Shown piece after piece: positions 1-6,526 of a DNA stretch of 7,948 nucleotides (its first letter is position 1; the number at the start of each line of letters is the position of its first letter). The translations under genes were made by a program, and so were the position numbers. Under the pieces are notes generated by a model. It was given only the letters and a program-made list of their open reading frames with translations, searched no databases and was not told the DNA's origin. Source of the stretch: JBGPLH01 sp041486365 [NCBI: Thermodesulfobacteriota bacterium] (GTDB lineage: Bacteria; JAUYMQ01); NCBI GenBank assembly GCA_041486365.1, contig JBGPLH010000144.1, forward strand, positions 1 through 7,948. The letters run 5' to 3'.

Positions 1-3000
1 CGCCCTCCCAATTGGAAAGGCGCTTCGCGCCGACTCGATGGGAACGCCGCCCTTCGGGCGGCTCGGCGGGAGCCTCGCCCTCCCACACCCGAGGTTCCGC
101 CCGCGCCCCGCCGCGCCGTCCTCCTCGCGCGCGACGCCGCGGGCTACGCCGAGATCTGCCGGCTCGTGACCGAGCGGCACCTCGGGCGGAACCGGCGCGA
201 TCTGCTGGGGCGGAACCATCGACAGAAGATTGAAGAGTCGGCCTTCGGCCGATCGGCTCGGCCGGAGGTCTCGGGCGAAGCGCGAGCCGGCTCTGAAAAC
301 GCGCCTCGCCCTCCCAAACCACCCGATGAAACGCCTTTCGATCTCGCCGACGCGATCCGCCGACACGCGGCGCGCGCCTTCGTACTCACGGCGAGCGAGC
401 CGCTCCTCGAGTCGCTCGCGGATGCGCTCCCGCGCGACGCGCTCTTCGCCGAGCTCCACCACTGGGGCGACGCGGAGAGCCGCGCGCGGATCCACCGCCT
501 CGCGCGCCGGGCCTCGCGCCTGGGGATCGGCGCGGTCGCCACCAACCGCGTCCATTTCCTCCGGCCCGACGGGCACCGGATCCACCGGGTGCTCTCCGCG
601 ATACGCACGAACACCACCGTGGGGTCGCTCCCGCCGCACGCAGAAGTCCCGCCCGAGGCGTTCTTCAAGTCGCCCGCCGCCATGGGCGCGCTCTTCCGCG
701 AGTTCCCGGAGGCCCTGACGCGCACGGCGGAGATCGCGGAGGCCTGCCGGGTCGATCTCGGGCTCGGCCGCCCCAGGCCGCCGCGCTTCCCCCTGCCGCC
801 GGGGGAGAGCGCCTTCTCGCTCCTGTGCAAGGAGGCCTTCGCCGGGCTCACGCGTCGCTACCGCCCCGTGACGCGCGAGGCCTGGGACACTCTCTCGCGC
901 GAGCTGGGCGTGATCGAGAAGCTCGATCTCGCGGACTACTTCCTGATCTGCTGGGATATCGTGCGCTGGGCGCGCGAGCGGGAGATGCCGTGCCTGGGGC
1001 GCGGCTCGGCGGCCAACTCGATCGTGAGCTACTGCCTGTCCATCACGCACGTCGACCCGCTCCGGCACAATCTCTTCTTCGAGCGGTTCCTGAACGAGGA
1101 GCGCACCACGCCCCCGGACTTCGACATCGACTTCGGCACCGACGACCGGGAGGAGGTGCTCGACTACGTCTTCGAGCGCCACGGGCGCGACCGCGTGGCG
1201 ATGATCTGCACGCTGAACCAGATGCACGCCCGCTCCGCCCTGCGCGAGACGGCCAAGGCGCTCGGCGTGCCGACCGCGGAGATCGACGGCTTCGTGAAGC
1301 GCCTCCCCGCCTTCGCCGACCCCGACGAGATCGAGGAGGTGATGCAGGCCTCCCCGGTGACGCGCGATCTCCCCGTGGACGAGGAGCCCTTTCGCACGCT
1401 GCTTTCCATCGCGAAGCGGATCGGCGGCTTCCCGCGCCACCTCGCCACGCACCCCTGCGGGATCGTCGTTGCGCCCGGGCCTATCACCGACTTCATGCCG
1501 CTCCAGATGGGGAACAAGGGACTCCCGATCACGCAGTGGTCGATGCATCCGGTGGAGGACGCGGGGCTGATCAAGATCGATCTGCTCGGGCAGAAGGGGC
1601 TCGCGGTGATCCCGGAGACGGTGCGCGAGGTGGAGAAGCACGAGGGAAGGAAGATCGACGTCGAGCAGGTCGACTATCTCGGCGACCCTCTCACCCGGAG
1701 GATGATGAGCGAGGGCGAGACCGAGGGGTGCTTCTACATCGAATCGCCGATCATGATGCAGCTCCTGCGGCAGGCACGCTGCGAGGACTTCGAGACGCTC
1801 ACGGCGCTCTCGTCGATCATCCGCCCGGGCGTGTCGAACTACGGCGGCAAGCAGACCTATCTCCGGCGGCACCTGGGGCTGGAGCAGGTCGAGGTGCCGC
1901 ACCCGATCCTCGAGCCGATCCTGCGCGACACGCACGGCTGCCTGATCTACCAGGAGCAGGTGATCCGTATCGCGGCGCGCATGGCGGGGATGAGCCTCGG
2001 CGAGGCCGACGGGCTGCGCAAGTGCATGTCGAAGAAGGGGGCCTGGAAGCCCATGGAGACCTACAAGGCGCGCTTCTACGACGGCGCGCGCGCCCAGGGG
2101 ATTCCCGGCTCGGTGATCGACACGGTGTACCGGCAGATCGAGAGCTTCGCCGGCTACGCCTTCTGCAAGGCGCACTCGGCGTCCTTCGCGCTCGAGAGCT
2201 TCGAGAGCCTCTACTGGAAGGCGCACCACCCGGCGGAGTTCATGGCGGCGGTGCTCTCGAACGAGGGCGGCTACTACTCGCCCTCGGAGTACGTGGAGGA
2301 GGCGCGGCGCACGGGCCTGGCGATTCTCCCGCCGCACGTGAACCGGAGCGAGGTGCGGTTTTCAGCGGAGGTTGCCGGAGATCATGAGCGAGCCGAGGTC
2401 GGCTCGGCAGGAGCCTCGCCCTCCCACAAAGAAGGTCCGCGCAACGCCGTGCGCGTGGGGCTCATGCGGGTGCGCGATCTGCGGCGGGAGATGGCCGAGG
2501 CCATCGTCGCCGCGCGGCGCGAGCGCCCCTTCGGGTCCGCGGGCGATCTGCTCGACCGCGTGCCGCTCAACAAGAAAGAAGCGGAGAACCTCGTGCGCTG
2601 CGGCGCGCTCGACGGCCTCGGGCCCTCGCGCCCCGCGATGCTCTGGGAGGTGGCGCTCGCGCGGGCGAACGACACGGGCGGGTCCGCCTTGGGAGGGCGA
2701 GGCGCTTCTTTGGGAGGGCGAGGCTCTTTTTTGGGAGGGCGGGACGCTTCTTGGGGAGGGCGAGGCTCCTGCCGAGCCATTCTCGATACACGCGGCCCTG
2801 CCTGGCCCGAATACGATGCCCGCCGGAAGCTCGCCCTGGAGCTGGAAATCCTCGACCTCACCGTCGGGGCCCACCCGCTCGCCCTCTTCGCCGATCGGGT
2901 GGCGTGCCTTCGCGAGAAGCGCCCCACGGTGCGCTCGATCGATCTGGCCGGGCACACGGGCGAGATGGTCTACACGGTAGGTTGGTACGTGACGGGGAAG

Positions 3001-3210
3001 CTGACGGCGACACAGGAAACGAAAGAGATGATGGAGTTCGTCACCTTCAGCGACGAGTGGGGCAAGTTCGAGGTGACGCTCTTCCCGAAGGCCTTCCAGC
3101 GCCTGGGCCTGGAACTGCGCCGCGGGAAGGGGCCCTTCCTGATTCGCGGGCGCGTGGAGTCAGAGCTGGGGATCGCGTGGCTCGTGGCGGCGGACATCGC
3201 GCTGGTGTGA
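1..3210 (+). CDS. dnaE2: DNA polymerase III alpha subunit, error-prone DnaE2/ImuC type (5' partial)
   Basis: Replicative-fold (family C) polymerase; the DnaE2/ImuC branch carries out mutagenic lesion bypass, usually with ImuA and ImuB. The frame is open from base 1, and residues around 38-62 (AVLLARDAAGYAEICRL) already match the PHP domain. The true start therefore lies upstream, and a GTG at 166 is not the start. 1069 residues are visible. Palm residues are present: PDFDIDF with D373/D375/D377, and D527 in KIDLLGQ. GRGSAANS (333-340) and YYSP followed by VNRSE favour DnaE2 over DnaE1. A helix-hairpin-helix region lies at about 825-880 and an OB fold at about 985-1065, ending directly at TGA. 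Three stretches look inserted relative to the family: residues 1-37, about 63-109 and about 800-812. A glycine-rich array occupies 897-926. All carry or adjoin the dispersed repeat. No stop or frameshift is seen. Family C polymerase is near certain; the DnaE2 assignment is probable. Confidence 0.85.
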   Translation, partial: RPPNWKGASRRLDGNAALRAARREPRPPTPEVPPAPRRAVLLARDAAGYAEICRLVTERHLGRNRRDLLGRNHRQKIEESAFGRSARPEVSGEARAGSENAPRPPKPPDETPFDLADAIRRHAARAFVLTASEPLLESLADALPRDALFAELHHWGDAESRARIHRLARRASRLGIGAVATNRVHFLRPDGHRIHRVLSAIRTNTTVGSLPPHAEVPPEAFFKSPAAMGALFREFPEALTRTAEIAEACRVDLGLGRPRPPRFPLPPGESAFSLLCKEAFAGLTRRYRPVTREAWDTLSRELGVIEKLDLADYFLICWDIVRWAREREMPCLGRGSAANSIVSYCLSITHVDPLRHNLFFERFLNEERTTPPDFDIDFGTDDREEVLDYVFERHGRDRVAMICTLNQMHARSALRETAKALGVPTAEIDGFVKRLPAFADPDEIEEVMQASPVTRDLPVDEEPFRTLLSIAKRIGGFPRHLATHPCGIVVAPGPITDFMPLQMGNKGLPITQWSMHPVEDAGLIKIDLLGQKGLAVIPETVREVEKHEGRKIDVEQVDYLGDPLTRRMMSEGETEGCFYIESPIMMQLLRQARCEDFETLTALSSIIRPGVSNYGGKQTYLRRHLGLEQVEVPHPILEPILRDTHGCLIYQEQVIRIAARMAGMSLGEADGLRKCMSKKGAWKPMETYKARFYDGARAQGIPGSVIDTVYRQIESFAGYAFCKAHSASFALESFESLYWKAHHPAEFMAAVLSNEGGYYSPSEYVEEARRTGLAILPPHVNRSEVRFSAEVAGDHERAEVGSAGASPSHKEGPRNAVRVGLMRVRDLRREMAEAIVAARRERPFGSAGDLLDRVPLNKKEAENLVRCGALDGLGPSRPAMLWEVALARANDTGGSALGGRGASLGGRGSFLGGRDASWGGRGSCRAILDTRGPAWPEYDARRKLALELEILDLTVGAHPLALFADRVACLREKRPTVRSIDLAGHTGEMVYTVGWYVTGKLTATQETKEMMEFVTFSDEWGKFEVTLFPKAFQRLGLELRRGKGPFLIRGRVESELGIAWLVAADIALV
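60..85 (+). repeat. dispersed palindromic repeat, copy A (in dnaE2)
   Basis: This is a near-full copy of a 26-base repeat that begins GGCTCGGCGGGAGCC and ends CGCCCTCCCA, one base different from the copies at 2401 and 6481. Its first 15 bases can fold as GGCTC/GAGCC around a 5-base loop. It is read in the polymerase frame as ...RREPRPP. A GC hairpin (46-62) overlaps its left end. Bases 1-10 (CGCCCTCCCA) look like the tail of another copy cut by the window edge. Confidence 0.8.
301..316 (+). repeat. dispersed repeat, right-half copy B (in dnaE2)
   Basis: GCGCCTCGCCCTCCCA matches the right half of the 26-base repeat. It is identical to the reverse complement of part of the first unit of the inverted array at 2689-2709. 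It is read as APRPPK in the polymerase frame and closes a stretch of about 45 codons (about residues 63-109) that has no counterpart in typical DnaE2 proteins as I know them. Confidence 0.65.
2401..2426 (+). repeat. dispersed palindromic repeat, copy C (in dnaE2)
   Basis: A full copy, identical over 26 bases to the copy at 6481-6506. It is read in frame as GSAGASPSH, between the strand ending RFSAEVAG and the family-conserved AVRVGLMRV segment, that is, in a loop before the helix-hairpin-helix region. It is preceded by an inverted repeat, CGAGCCGA and TCGGCTCG separated by GG (2389-2406), which overlaps its left end. Confidence 0.85.
2689..2778 (-). repeat. inverted tandem array of the dispersed repeat (4 x 21 bp, in dnaE2)
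   Basis: Four units start at 2689, 2710, 2731 and 2752, each exactly 21 bp and each containing GGGAGGGCG or a close variant. The polymerase frame reads them as LGGRGAS, LGGRGSF, LGGRDAS and WGGRGSC, followed by RA. The last unit extends into a full 26-base copy (2753-2778), in reverse orientation to the copy at 2401-2426. Because the period is a multiple of three, gain or loss of units would keep the polymerase in frame. The array sits in the linker after the helix-hairpin-helix region. Confidence 0.85.
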
Positions 3211-3903: not shown

Positions 3904-5028
3904 GTGCTGAGCGCCTTCCTCTGCGCCCTGGTGCTCGCCCTCTGGGCGCTCCTGTGCCTGGGGCGCCTGCACGAGGACGATCGCTTCCGCCTCGATCCGT
4001 CGCCCCCGCCGGCCGAGGACCCGCGCGTCTCGGTGATCATTCCCGCCCGCAACGAAGCGCACCAGATCGCCGGCTGCATCGCGTCGCTGCGCGCGCAGAC
4101 GCTGCGTCCCAAGGAAATCGTCGTCGTGGACGACGGCTCGACCGACGGCACGGCCGATGTCCTGCGCGGCCTGGCCGCCCGCCTGCCCCACGATGACGTG
4201 CCCCTGATCCTCGTGGAAGGGCTCGCCCACCCGCCGGAGGGCTGGATCGGGAAGAGCCACGCGATCGCGCAGGGCCTGCCCCGGGCCGGCGGCGCCTGGA
4301 TCCTCTTCACCGACGCCGACACGGTGCACGCGCCCGAGGCGCTCGCCTCCGCCCTGGGTCACGCACAGCGCCACGATCTTGCCCTGCTTTCGATGACGGG
4401 GGATCAACGGGCGGTGGGCGTCTGGGAGAAGATCATCCAGCCGCTCGTCTTCCGGCTCCTCGATTTCCTCTATCCCATGCCCGTCGTGAACGGCCCGGAT
4501 CCGGATCGTGCCGCGGCCAACGGGATCTACCTGCTCATTCGCCGCGACGCCTACGAGGCCGTGGGGACCCACGCCGCGTTCCGGGGGGAGGTGCTCGAGG
4601 ACGTCGCGATGGCGCGGGCGGTGCGGCGCGCGGGGCACCGGACGGCGTTCCTCCGGGGCGGCGCGCTGCTGTCGGTGCGCATGTACCGGGACCTGCGACA
4701 CCTGTGGGAGGGGTGGACGAAGAACCTCTGGCCGCTCCTGGGCCACGACGCGCGGCGGTGCGCGCTCGCGGCCGCGGGTGTGCTCGCGGCCGGGGCGCTC
4801 CCGATCGCTATGCTATGCTATGCCGGCCCGGCCGGATGGGCCGCGGCGACGGGGGCTTTCGGCGCGGAGGCCTGGCTCCGGTCGCGGGACCGGGGCAACC
4901 TCATATATGTCGCCACGCTCCCGCTCGGCGCCCTGATCCTCGTCGCGATGATCGCGGAGTCGGCCCGGCGGCATCCCGGCGGCGGAGGGATTTCGTGGAA
5001 GGGAAGGACCTACCCGTCGTCACCATGA
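3904..5028 (+). CDS. membrane-anchored family 2 glycosyltransferase
   Basis: A GT-A fold transferase of 374 residues that would move a sugar from a nucleotide sugar to a lipid or other acceptor at the inner membrane. A hydrophobic helix spans residues 2-20. The GT2 domain begins at VSVIIPARNE (42-51), continues with VVVDDGSTDGT (73-83) and GKSHAIAQG (116-124), and has the metal-binding DAD at 137-139 in FTDADT. NGIYLLIRRDAYEAVG (206-221), LEDVAMA (231-237) and WEGWTKN (268-274) resemble the acceptor half of CrtQ/HpnB-like enzymes. Two further membrane segments lie at about 286-306 and 332-352, and the protein ends with the family-type WKGRTY (365-370). GTG 3904 is the first usable start after an in-frame stop at 3802. 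The 3' end overlaps the next gene, which suggests co-transcription with the pterin genes. Carotenoid, hopanoid or other lipid acceptors are the conventional guess; the acceptor is unknown. Confidence 0.85.
   Translation: MLSAFLCALVLALWALLCLGRLHEDDRFRLDPSPPPAEDPRVSVIIPARNEAHQIAGCIASLRAQTLRPKEIVVVDDGSTDGTADVLRGLAARLPHDDVPLILVEGLAHPPEGWIGKSHAIAQGLPRAGGAWILFTDADTVHAPEALASALGHAQRHDLALLSMTGDQRAVGVWEKIIQPLVFRLLDFLYPMPVVNGPDPDRAAANGIYLLIRRDAYEAVGTHAAFRGEVLEDVAMARAVRRAGHRTAFLRGGALLSVRMYRDLRHLWEGWTKNLWPLLGHDARRCALAAAGVLAAGALPIAMLCYAGPAGWAAATGAFGAEAWLRSRDRGNLIYVATLPLGALILVAMIAESARRHPGGGGISWKGRTYPSSP
4807..4823 (+). repeat. short GCTAT pentanucleotide tandem repeat
   Basis: Just over three copies of GCTAT occur within the coding region for the second membrane segment of the glycosyltransferase (residues IAMLCYA). 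The stretch is A/T-rich against a GC-rich background. Gain or loss of one 5-base unit would shift the frame. Three copies are few for real slippage. Confidence 0.5.
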
Positions 5029-5468
5029 CGCGGCGGATGACCTTCAACGCCGCCCACCGGTACCACCGTCCCGAGTGGAGCGAGGCCCGCAACCGGGAGG
5101 TCTTCGGCGCCTGCGTGAACACGCACGGCCACAACTACACGCTCGAGGTGAGCGTCCGCGGCCCCGTCGACCCCCCCACCGGCATGCTCTTCAACATGAC
5201 CCTGCTGAAACAGATCCTCGAGGAAGAGGTCCGCGCCGACTTCGATCACGTGCAGCTCGATCGGGACGTCGTGGCGCTGCGCGACCGGATCCCGACCTGC
5301 GAGAACCTCGCACGGGCGCTCTGGGATCGCGTCGCCCCCCGCGTGGCCGCCGCCGAGGGCGGGCGCTGCCGGCTCGCGCATCTGCGGCTCTTCGAGACGG
5401 AGAAGCTCTTCGTCGAGATCGGCGAAGGCGATCCGATCCCGGCCGCCGCCCAGGGAGCGCCCGCATGA
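4995..5468 (+). CDS. queD: 6-pyruvoyl-tetrahydropterin synthase family protein, PTPS-I/QueD type
   Basis: A tunnel-fold (COG0720) enzyme acting on 7,8-dihydroneopterin triphosphate or related pterins. From GTG 4995 it has 157 residues. Zinc ligands H21 (FNAAH), H44 and H46 (THGH) are present, with the catalytic cysteine C40 spaced CxxxHGH, the PTPS-I signature that includes 6-carboxy-tetrahydropterin synthase QueD. The Asp-His pair D84-H85 (FDHVQLD) and the pterin-anchoring Glu E134 (FETEK) are also present. GTG 4995 is preferred because GGAGG lies 6 bases upstream and PVVTMTRR completes the first beta strand. The alternative ATG 5025 overlaps the previous stop as ATGA but has no nearby ribosome-binding site. 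No queC or queE gene is in view. The neighbours are GTP cyclohydrolase I and a second PTPS, so a role outside queuosine synthesis is possible. Confidence 0.85.
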   Translation: MEGKDLPVVTMTRRMTFNAAHRYHRPEWSEARNREVFGACVNTHGHNYTLEVSVRGPVDPPTGMLFNMTLLKQILEEEVRADFDHVQLDRDVVALRDRIPTCENLARALWDRVAPRVAAAEGGRCRLAHLRLFETEKLFVEIGEGDPIPAAAQGAPA

Positions 5469-5890
5469 TGCAGCTCACCCACCGCTTCGACTTCTGCGCC
5501 TCCCACCGGCTGCACAACCCGGCCCTCTCCGAGAAGGAGAACATCGCCATCTACGGGAAGTGCAACAATCCCAACGGCCACGGCCACAACTACGACCTCG
5601 AGGTGACGATCGCCGGCGAGCCGGACCCGGAGACGGGGATGGTGCTGGAGCTGTCGATCCTGAAGCGGATCGTGGAGGACGAGATCGTCTCCCGCTACGA
5701 TCACAAGCACCTGAACCTCGACGTCCCGGACTTCAAGGAAGTGATCCCCACGGCGGAGAACATGCTCGTCGTGGTCTGGGATCGCCTGGCGGGAAGGATT
5801 CCGCGCGGCCGCCTCGCGCGCCTGCGCCTCACCGAGACCGCCAACAACGTGTTCGAGTATCACGGACCGGCCGTCCGCCGCGGCCCTTGA
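5465..5890 (+). CDS. ptpS: 6-pyruvoyl-tetrahydropterin synthase, PTPS-II type
   Basis: Converts 7,8-dihydroneopterin triphosphate to 6-pyruvoyl-tetrahydropterin, the middle step of tetrahydrobiopterin synthesis. The protein has 141 residues, close to mammalian PTPS. Zinc ligands are H14 (CASH), H39 and H41. C33 has CxxxxxHGH spacing in GKCNNPNGHGHNY, the PTPS-II signature and essentially the mammalian motif. D79-H80 (YDHKHLNLDVP), TAEN (96-99) and E124 (TETANNVFEY) complete the active site. The start codon overlaps the previous stop as ATGA (5465-5468), and AGGGAG at 5452-5457 provides a ribosome-binding site, so the two PTPS genes are probably translationally coupled. GTP cyclohydrolase I begins 15 bases downstream. 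Family and motif class are clear; the product in this organism is inferred from them. Confidence 0.9.
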   Translation: MMQLTHRFDFCASHRLHNPALSEKENIAIYGKCNNPNGHGHNYDLEVTIAGEPDPETGMVLELSILKRIVEDEIVSRYDHKHLNLDVPDFKEVIPTAENMLVVVWDRLAGRIPRGRLARLRLTETANNVFEYHGPAVRRGP

Positions 5891-6480: not shown

Positions 6481-6526
6481 GGCTCGGCAGGAGCCTCGCC
6501 CTCCCAGGCAGGCGCCTCGCCCTCTC
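6481..6526 (+). repeat. dispersed palindromic repeat, intergenic copy plus a degenerate second copy
   Basis: 6481-6506 is identical to the full copy inside dnaE2 (2401-2426). A degenerate second copy of the right half follows at once (6507-6526, GGCAGG then CGCCTCGCCCTC). This fills most of the 83 bases between the folE stop and the reductase start, the only sizeable gap in this gene run. The GGCTC/GAGCC stem could form in the transcript. Confidence 0.85.

What the first reader, a model, noticed from the sequence alone, without database searches (positions are those of the whole stretch)
60..2778. Stop-free palindromic repeat inserted in frame in a DNA polymerase gene
The 26-base repeat has no stop codon in any of the six frames. 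In this gene it appears in both orientations and in different frames: it reads REPRPP at 60-85, GSAGASPSH at 2401 and GGRGSCRA at 2753. All sites are loops or linkers outside the conserved core. This is the behaviour expected of a mobile or amplifying element selected to survive inside genes, comparable in principle to the protein-coding palindromic elements of Rickettsia. Most of the window's copies (about eight of ten) are in this one gene.
Basis: partly seen in the sequence, partly recalled or inferred. Interest (0 to 1): 0.65.

Follow-up and report, generated by a model that had tools for sequence, protein, structure and literature searches.

The report
REP palindromes inserted inside dnaE2
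A short hairpin-forming repeat of the REP type, a known kind of small bacterial repeat thought to be copied by a helper enzyme, has landed several times in frame inside the gene for a DNA-repair polymerase, a situation already described in other bacteria.

Summary
The window has four full copies of a 25-26 bp repeat (three inside a dnaE2-type gene in both orientations, one 11 bp after the folE stop) plus half-copies, including a 21-bp-period array. Those in the gene are read through, and relatives' genes lack the clearest inserts. On one strand the repeat reads GGAG-GGC-GA-GGC-TCCT-GCC-GA-GCC: a REP-like foot, then a hairpin with a G.A bulge. It also occurs in 10 of 392 Planctomycetota genomes sampled. 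There it forms head-to-head pairs with genome-specific spacing (REPINs), one stem pair covaries (57 of 58 sites Watson-Crick), and some carriers encode REP-associated transposases (RAYTs). Best explanation: a REP/REPIN family, probably moved in trans by a RAYT, not a new class of gene-adapted element. REPs in dnaE2 were reported in 2013 (PMC3733652). Unusual here: the GGAG foot, identical copies in two distant lineages (0 of 80 genomes of the nearest phylum have it at up to 2 mismatches), and several inserts in one gene. The RAYT link is suggestive only; the window's genome is not held.

The parts
1..3210 (+). dnaE2/imuC-type C-family DNA polymerase gene, 5' end cut by the window, open over 1069 codons, carrying the inserts
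   Evidence: Pfam DNA_pol3_alpha, DNA_pol3_finger, HHH_6. NCBIfam does not separate replicative from error-prone: PRK05673 701 bits and PRK05672 614 bits, both under their cut-offs. Relative L003 (51% over the alignment; 59% best segment) has the gene behind lexA and a Y-family polymerase gene, the SOS cassette layout.
1..10 (+). possible tail of a further copy cut off by the window edge (CGCCCTCCCA)
   Evidence: too short to test alone
60..85 (+). full REP copy 1 (1 mismatch), reads REPRPP; N-terminal region, length-variable in relatives
255..315 (+). possible degenerate copy 255-273 and tag-side half copy 301-315, inside a ~48-residue insert absent from all 10 relatives that cover the site
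   Evidence: (301-315); 255-273 has shuffle p = 0.05 as one of seven segments tried, so it is not secure
2401..2426 (+). full REP copy 2, reads GSAGASPSH; inside a 22-23-residue insert absent from 8 of 8 relatives that cover the site
   Evidence: falls in a gap of the alignment to solved polymerase 3e0d
2689..2753 (-). three tag-side half copies with 21-bp (7-codon) period, read LGGRGAS LGGRGSF LGGRDAS; linker length-variable in relatives
2754..2778 (-). full REP copy 3 closing the array, reads GGRGSCRA
6481..6506 (+). full REP copy 4, intergenic, 11 bp after the folE stop
6512..6526 (+). tag-side half copy, 21 bp after the same part of copy 4

Best explanation
The repeat is a REP-type element: a GGAG foot followed by an imperfect hairpin (GGC GA GGC TCCT GCC GA GCC). 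It belongs to a family that in several Planctomycetota genomes is arranged as REPINs (two inverted REPs at a fixed distance). By analogy with characterised REPs, a RAYT (Y1/HuH transposase) recognises the folded single strand in trans, cuts beside it and joins a copy elsewhere. Copies that land in genes survive only where the frame stays open and the protein loop tolerates them, which for this GC-rich element is easy; loops of dnaE2 are such places. The half-copy arrays grew by tandem duplication of 21 bp. Shown: dispersed repeat, hairpin with a covarying pair, REPIN pairs, empty sites in relatives, RAYT genes in some carrier genomes. Inferred: RAYT as the mover, any activity in the window's organism, growth of the 21-bp array by slippage, near-neutrality of the inserts.
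For: 25-mer at <=1 mismatch in 10 of 392 Planctomycetota genomes, reversed-pattern control 0. Broad pattern at <=3 mismatches: 1-141 copies in the 10 carriers against 0-2 for the reversed control. 21 of 23 close pairs among the listed places are head-to-head with genome-specific spacing, 75-78, 42-46 and 56-57 bp; in 374 kb of G473 chosen around known copies 12 pairs, five of them already, all lie at 56-57 bp. Stem pair 9:18 is G-C 44, A-T 10, C-G 3, G-T 1 of 58 sites; 57 Watson-Crick against 36.3 in shuffles (0 of 2000 reach it); the G.A bulge is kept at 54 and 55 of 58. Proteins over the NCBIfam RAYT cut-off (100.4 and 82.5 bits, cut-off 80) in two carriers. Strong RAYT matches (E <= 1e-25) in 5 of 10 carriers against 5 of 49 non-carriers, Fisher p = 0.008 without correction for kinship. 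In G473 two of five RAYT-like matches have a copy at 180 and 377 bp. The intergenic window copy sits 11 bp after folE, a usual REP place (PMC3733652).
Against: The foot is GGAG, not the published GT[AG]G (PMC6006769) nor the degenerate forms named in PMC3733652. Window copies form no head-to-head pair; none of seven flanking segments tried holds a convincing partner. RAYT adjacency was seen in one genome only, and over about 60 RAYT/IS200-like loci examined P(>=2) = 0.09. The 5 non-carriers with strong RAYT matches have no copy even with the broad pattern, and 5 of 10 carriers have no strong match to that RAYT. Y1_Tnp was found in 0 of 13 records and genomes holding the viral-collection copies or the nearest relatives, and only 1 of 80 genomes of the phylum nearest the window has a RAYT over cut-off. 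The folding energy of the 26-mer alone is no better than shuffles.
Confidence: 0.75

Rival explanations
1. A protein-coding palindromic element specifically adapted to live inside genes (as proposed for Rickettsia RPE-1), selected for stop-free frames.
For: About four sites in one gene, both orientations, all open.
Against: Stop-freedom is the norm for such GC-rich 26-mers, and the partner arm carries TGA. Of 18 repeat-bearing open frames from carrier genomes or viral-collection contigs given to Pfam (9, 9; L079 in two frames, L029 for two copies), 4 had any match, and in none did the printed best stretches lie on both sides of the repeat. The window has an intergenic copy too.
Confidence: 0.1
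2. Tandem expansion in a GC-rich gene (replication slippage), with no mobile element involved.
For: The 21-bp period at 2689-2778 and the 21-bp step at 6481-6526.
Against: Slippage does not explain near-identical 25-mers in both orientations at 60, 2401, 2754 and 6481, nor fixed-distance inverted pairs in other genomes.
Confidence: 0.05
3. A REP-type element moved by a transposase other than a RAYT (an IS200/IS605 Y1 transposase), or spread by recombination and templated repair.
For: All 10 carriers have Y1_Tnp proteins (non-carriers not searched with this family), many of plain IS200 type by eye. RAYT-REP adjacency is weak overall. Half of the carriers lack a strong match to the tested RAYT.
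Against: Proteins over the REP_Tyr_transpos cut-off occur in two carriers. The REPIN layout is, from recall, the published hallmark of RAYT systems (PMC3116915, only the listing and start of its abstract seen).
Confidence: 0.15

Closest known systems
GTAG-tagged REPs, including intragenic ones (Di Nocera 2013, PMC3733652; abstract, sections 5, 15, 16, part 1 of 17 and passages read)
   Same: 20-40 bp hairpin with an unpaired 4-base foot, head-to-head dimers, dispersal, some copies in frame in genes including dnaE2, uvrA and DNA polymerase I; usual place near the 3' end of genes
   Different: Foot GGAG instead of GTAG and its named variants. Whether one of their Opitutus or Rhodopirellula families has this stem could not be checked (the figure is not held).
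REPINs with RAYTs (PMC3116915, listing and start of abstract only; PMC2817692 and PMC8266576, passages)
   Same: Two inverted REPs at a genome-specific distance; single copies beside two RAYT-like genes (G473); a conserved bulge in the stem, as in the E. coli REP
   Different: Window copies are single or truncated, not paired; cutting by a RAYT untested
In-frame REPs inside tnpAREP genes, subclass 2.4 (PMC6006769, sections 13 and 17 and passages)
   Same: REP inserted in a coding frame without breaking it
   Different: Host gene is dnaE2-type. The candidate RAYTs L099, L106 and L108 have EH[AIV]H as HuH motif, a form not listed in that paper's Table 1.
Rickettsia palindromic elements (RPE; as told in PMC3733652)
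   Same: Palindromic repeats in frame in genes
   Different: RPE-4/6 are there counted with the CGTC repeats, which lack an associated transposase; no sequence relation tested here

Membership tests
REP (broad sense) | short hairpin with a conserved unpaired foot 5' of the stem | tested here: met
   covariation and kept bulge over 58 sites. Foot GGAG at 59-63 of 63 sites per position and G at the freely searched second position in 55 of 58, both partly by construction because loci were fetched with GGAG patterns. Plain folding energy is no better than shuffles.
REP (broad sense) | many dispersed copies in a genome | tested here: met
   Met in other genomes: 1-141 copies in 10 carriers (one carrier has a single copy). 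Not testable in the window's genome, which is not held.
GTAG superfamily (PMC3733652) | foot GTAG, or GYAG/GYRG/GTRG/GTMG/GTGG | tested here: not met
   The four full window copies have GGAG. In viral contigs the GGAG form matches 17 stretches (16 contigs, some of them near-identical), the GTAG form 1, the reversed control 0.
REPIN | inverted REP pair, feet outside, fixed spacing | tested here: met
   21 of 23 close pairs in listed Planctomycetota places; NOT met for the window's own copies
REP moved by RAYT | cognate RAYT gene next to the repeat | tested here: inconclusive
   2 of 5 RAYT-like matches in G473, none elsewhere at <=3 mismatches in the flanks examined; P 0.0007 in that genome, 0.09 over about 60 loci
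REP moved by RAYT | cleavage of the single-stranded hairpin | not testable with these tools
   bench assay needed
Rickettsia-type protein-coding element | adapted to coding frames (no stops, mainly intragenic) | tested here: not met
   stop-freedom ordinary, partner arm has TGA; no Pfam-spanning case among 18 sampled frames. The genic share over a whole genome was not counted.

The most novel reading that the evidence does not exclude
A GGAG-footed REP/RAYT system has crossed between phyla (identical 25-mers in Planctomycetota and in a Krumholzibacteriota-like lineage whose 80 held relatives lack it), and dnaE2, an SOS mutagenesis gene, is a recurrent landing place for palindromic repeats, so that bursts of error-prone synthesis and REP spread are mechanistically coupled.
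Probability: 0.15. Interest if true: 0.7.

Novelty: new variant of a known kind. Interest (0 to 1): 0.42.

Why it matters
It adds a REP family with a non-canonical foot, found in at least two distant bacterial lineages, and a clear case of repeated in-frame REP insertion into an error-prone-type polymerase. It bears on how REPs spread between phyla, on the untested remark in PMC3733652 that repair genes are hit more than chance would give, and on annotation: peptides such as GSAGASPS, EGEAPAEP and GGRGSCRA in predicted proteins (window; contigs) can be translated REPs.

Tried and rejected
Tried without gain: the window's own genome is not held. Exact peptides and a 24-mer in the paper library: 0 papers. 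A 32-base query with the repeat against plasmids and phages by blastn: no match. Partner arms around window copies: none convincing. The repeat in the dnaE-type genes found in the carriers (9 of 10 carriers had one): none at <=3 mismatches, two 6-mismatch hits. Structure model of the window polymerase: mean pLDDT 56, pTM 0.28, from 8 sequences; its lowest stretches (1-35, 62-111, 783-823, 890-957) include all insert sites, but others are as low, so I give it little weight. The alignment (a stretch of L001 with stops read through) was useless and dropped.

Considered and rejected: selection for six-frame openness; pure slippage for the full copies; this gene as a proven hotspot (P = 0.09). A second dnaE2-like gene, in G380, first looked like an independent case with three other repeats in frame, but its parts lie in scrambled order on the contig, so it is broken or misassembled and I do not count it as support.

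Limits: Planctomycetota were sampled at 392 genomes drawn evenly; apart from the 80 genomes of the phylum of G003 and single genomes behind the loci, other phyla were not searched. Phylum names are read from record titles of L003 and L008. The carrier/non-carrier comparison is not corrected for kinship. The sites of the covariation count come from loci fetched by near-identical patterns and their neighbours. One search used printed places only: all of G380, G268, G253, G213, G374 and G141, 23 of 33 of G473, none of G159, G179 and G415.

Full report
OBSERVATION. The gene is open from base 1 to its stop at 3210. It carries the polymerase alpha, finger and HHH_6 domains and keeps the PDFDIDF and KIDLLG motifs (seen in the translation; their catalytic role is recalled). 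NCBIfam does not separate replicative from error-prone type. Relative L003 has the gene behind lexA and a Y-family polymerase gene, so dnaE2/imuC is the likely name.

EMPTY SITES. One scan of genome contigs with a stretch of the polymerase gave 27 loci, the best at 64% identity (L001, labelled Latescibacterota) and four labelled Krumholzibacteriota or Krumholzibacteriia at 55-59%. In an alignment with 11 of the 27, the stretch around the 2401 copy is absent in all 8 that cover it, the ~48-residue stretch holding 255-315 is absent in all 10 that cover it, and the sites of the 60 copy and of the 2689-2778 array are length-variable. In the alignment to solved polymerase 3e0d the 2401 insert also falls in a gap. 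So these look like insertions in loops and linkers, although the 2401 copy is inside the HHH_6 match.

STOP-FREEDOM. 4351 of 7923 window 26-mers are stop-free in six frames, and 1925 of 2379 with at least 20 G+C; the common partner arm of the family has TGA.

WHAT IT IS. On the other strand the element reads GGAG followed by GGC GA GGC TCCT GCC GA GCC. The plain folding energy is not better than shuffles, but comparison supports the hairpin: over 58 distinct sites, pair 9:18 is G-C 44, A-T 10, C-G 3, G-T 1, i.e. 57 Watson-Crick against 36.3 in shuffles, and the G.A bulge positions are kept at 54 and 55 of 58. The foot GGAG is nearly invariant over 63 sites, partly because the sites were fetched with it. 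A less biased test is the scan of viral contigs: GGAG form 17 stretches (16 contigs, some near-identical), GTAG form 1, reversed control 0.

WHERE ELSE. At <=3 mismatches in 0 of 8 genomes of the best DnaE2 relatives and 0 of 18 genomes behind other loci; at <=2 mismatches in 0 of 80 of the phylum of G003 (some genomes shared); at <=1 mismatch in 10 of 392 Planctomycetota. With a broad pattern at <=3 mismatches the carriers hold 1 to 141 copies (G179 141, G374 33, G473 33, G159 30, G380 29, G253 20, G268 13, G213 13, G141 10, G415 1), the reversed control 0-2. Of the other 26 genomes in that call, 3 had 1, 1 and 6 matches and 23 none; the reversed control had 1-2 matches in 7 of the 26. Exact copies also lie in 9 stretches of the viral collection, none found in the plasmid or phage records by blastn.

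REPIN LAYOUT. Among listed places, 21 of 23 pairs closer than 200 bp are head-to-head, with spacing 75-78 bp in G268, 42-46 in G253 and 56-57 in G473; the other two are head-to-tail in G374. In 374 kb of G473, chosen around known copies and RAYT-like genes, twelve pairs lie at 56-57 bp, five of them already. Contigs L029 and L033 of the viral collection show the same layout. G380, G213 and G141 showed no pair, and neither does the window.

MOBILISER. Y1_Tnp proteins are in 10 of 10 carriers, many of plain IS200 type by eye; in 0 of 9 viral-collection records and 0 of 4 relatives. Proteins of G473 (100.4 bits) and G268 (82.5 bits) pass the REP-associated tyrosine transposase cut-off of 80. Strong matches to the G473 protein (E <= 1e-25) are in 5 of 10 carriers, 5 of 49 non-carriers and 0 of 6 genomes of the phylum of G003, p = 0.008 for the first two without kinship correction. 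Against: those 5 non-carriers have no copy, and 1 of 80 genomes near the window has a RAYT over cut-off, without this repeat in its flanks. In G473 two of five RAYT-like matches have a copy at 180 and 377 bp; P = 0.0007 for that genome, 0.09 over about 60 loci looked at. I read this as suggestive.

MECHANISM. By analogy with the E. coli and Stenotrophomonas REP enzymes (PMC8266576, passages: foot and, in E. coli, bulge matter; cutting at CT, with the foot as proposed guide), a RAYT would bind the folded single strand, cut beside it and join it elsewhere. The A and G proposed to guide CT cutting in GTAG are kept in GGAG; that is inference. Insertion in frame is then filtered by selection on the protein. 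The 21-bp arrays look like later tandem growth of the foot-side half, since the same 21-bp step occurs at the intergenic copy, where no frame matters.

PRIOR ART. PMC3733652 (abstract, sections 5, 15, 16, part 1 of 17 and passages) reports intragenic REPs, names DnaE2 among the hit genes and notes loops as tolerant places. PMC6006769 (sections 13 and 17 and passages) reports REPs inserted in frame in tnpAREP genes. PMC2817692 was seen in passages. A search for the peptides and a 24-mer found 0 papers. A search for DnaE2 with 'repetitive extragenic palindromic' found only PMC3733652, and a looser search had it first of 10 listed out of 510. Novelty is therefore a variant: GGAG foot, a two-lineage distribution, and several inserts in one dnaE2-type gene.

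Noticed in passing
L162:6806-10832 (G380 C654): A dnaE2-like gene in scrambled order on the contig, whose middle part holds three in-frame stretches, each related to a different dispersed repeat of that genome: an AATCCAA array, a CCCTCTCCC..GGGAGAGGG palindrome, and a GCACAG..CTGTGC palindrome. Broken gene or misassembly.
   Followed up: partly
G141, places C8:13791, C55:11344, C189:17706 (no window coordinates): Variant REPs in which the G.A bulge is replaced by paired bases (GGAGGGCCCGGCTCCCGCCGGGCC and similar), suggesting a sister family with a perfect stem.
   Followed up: no
L029:8077-8100: One copy with the canonical GTAG foot, paired head-to-head with a GGAG-footed copy at 8026.
   Followed up: no
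window 5025-5890: Two adjacent 6-pyruvoyl-tetrahydropterin-synthase-like genes before folE, a possible queuosine or pterin cluster.
   Followed up: no
L053, L062, L070, L078 (G268): The spacer of these G268 REPINs itself contains a second GC-rich inverted repeat next to one arm.
   Followed up: no
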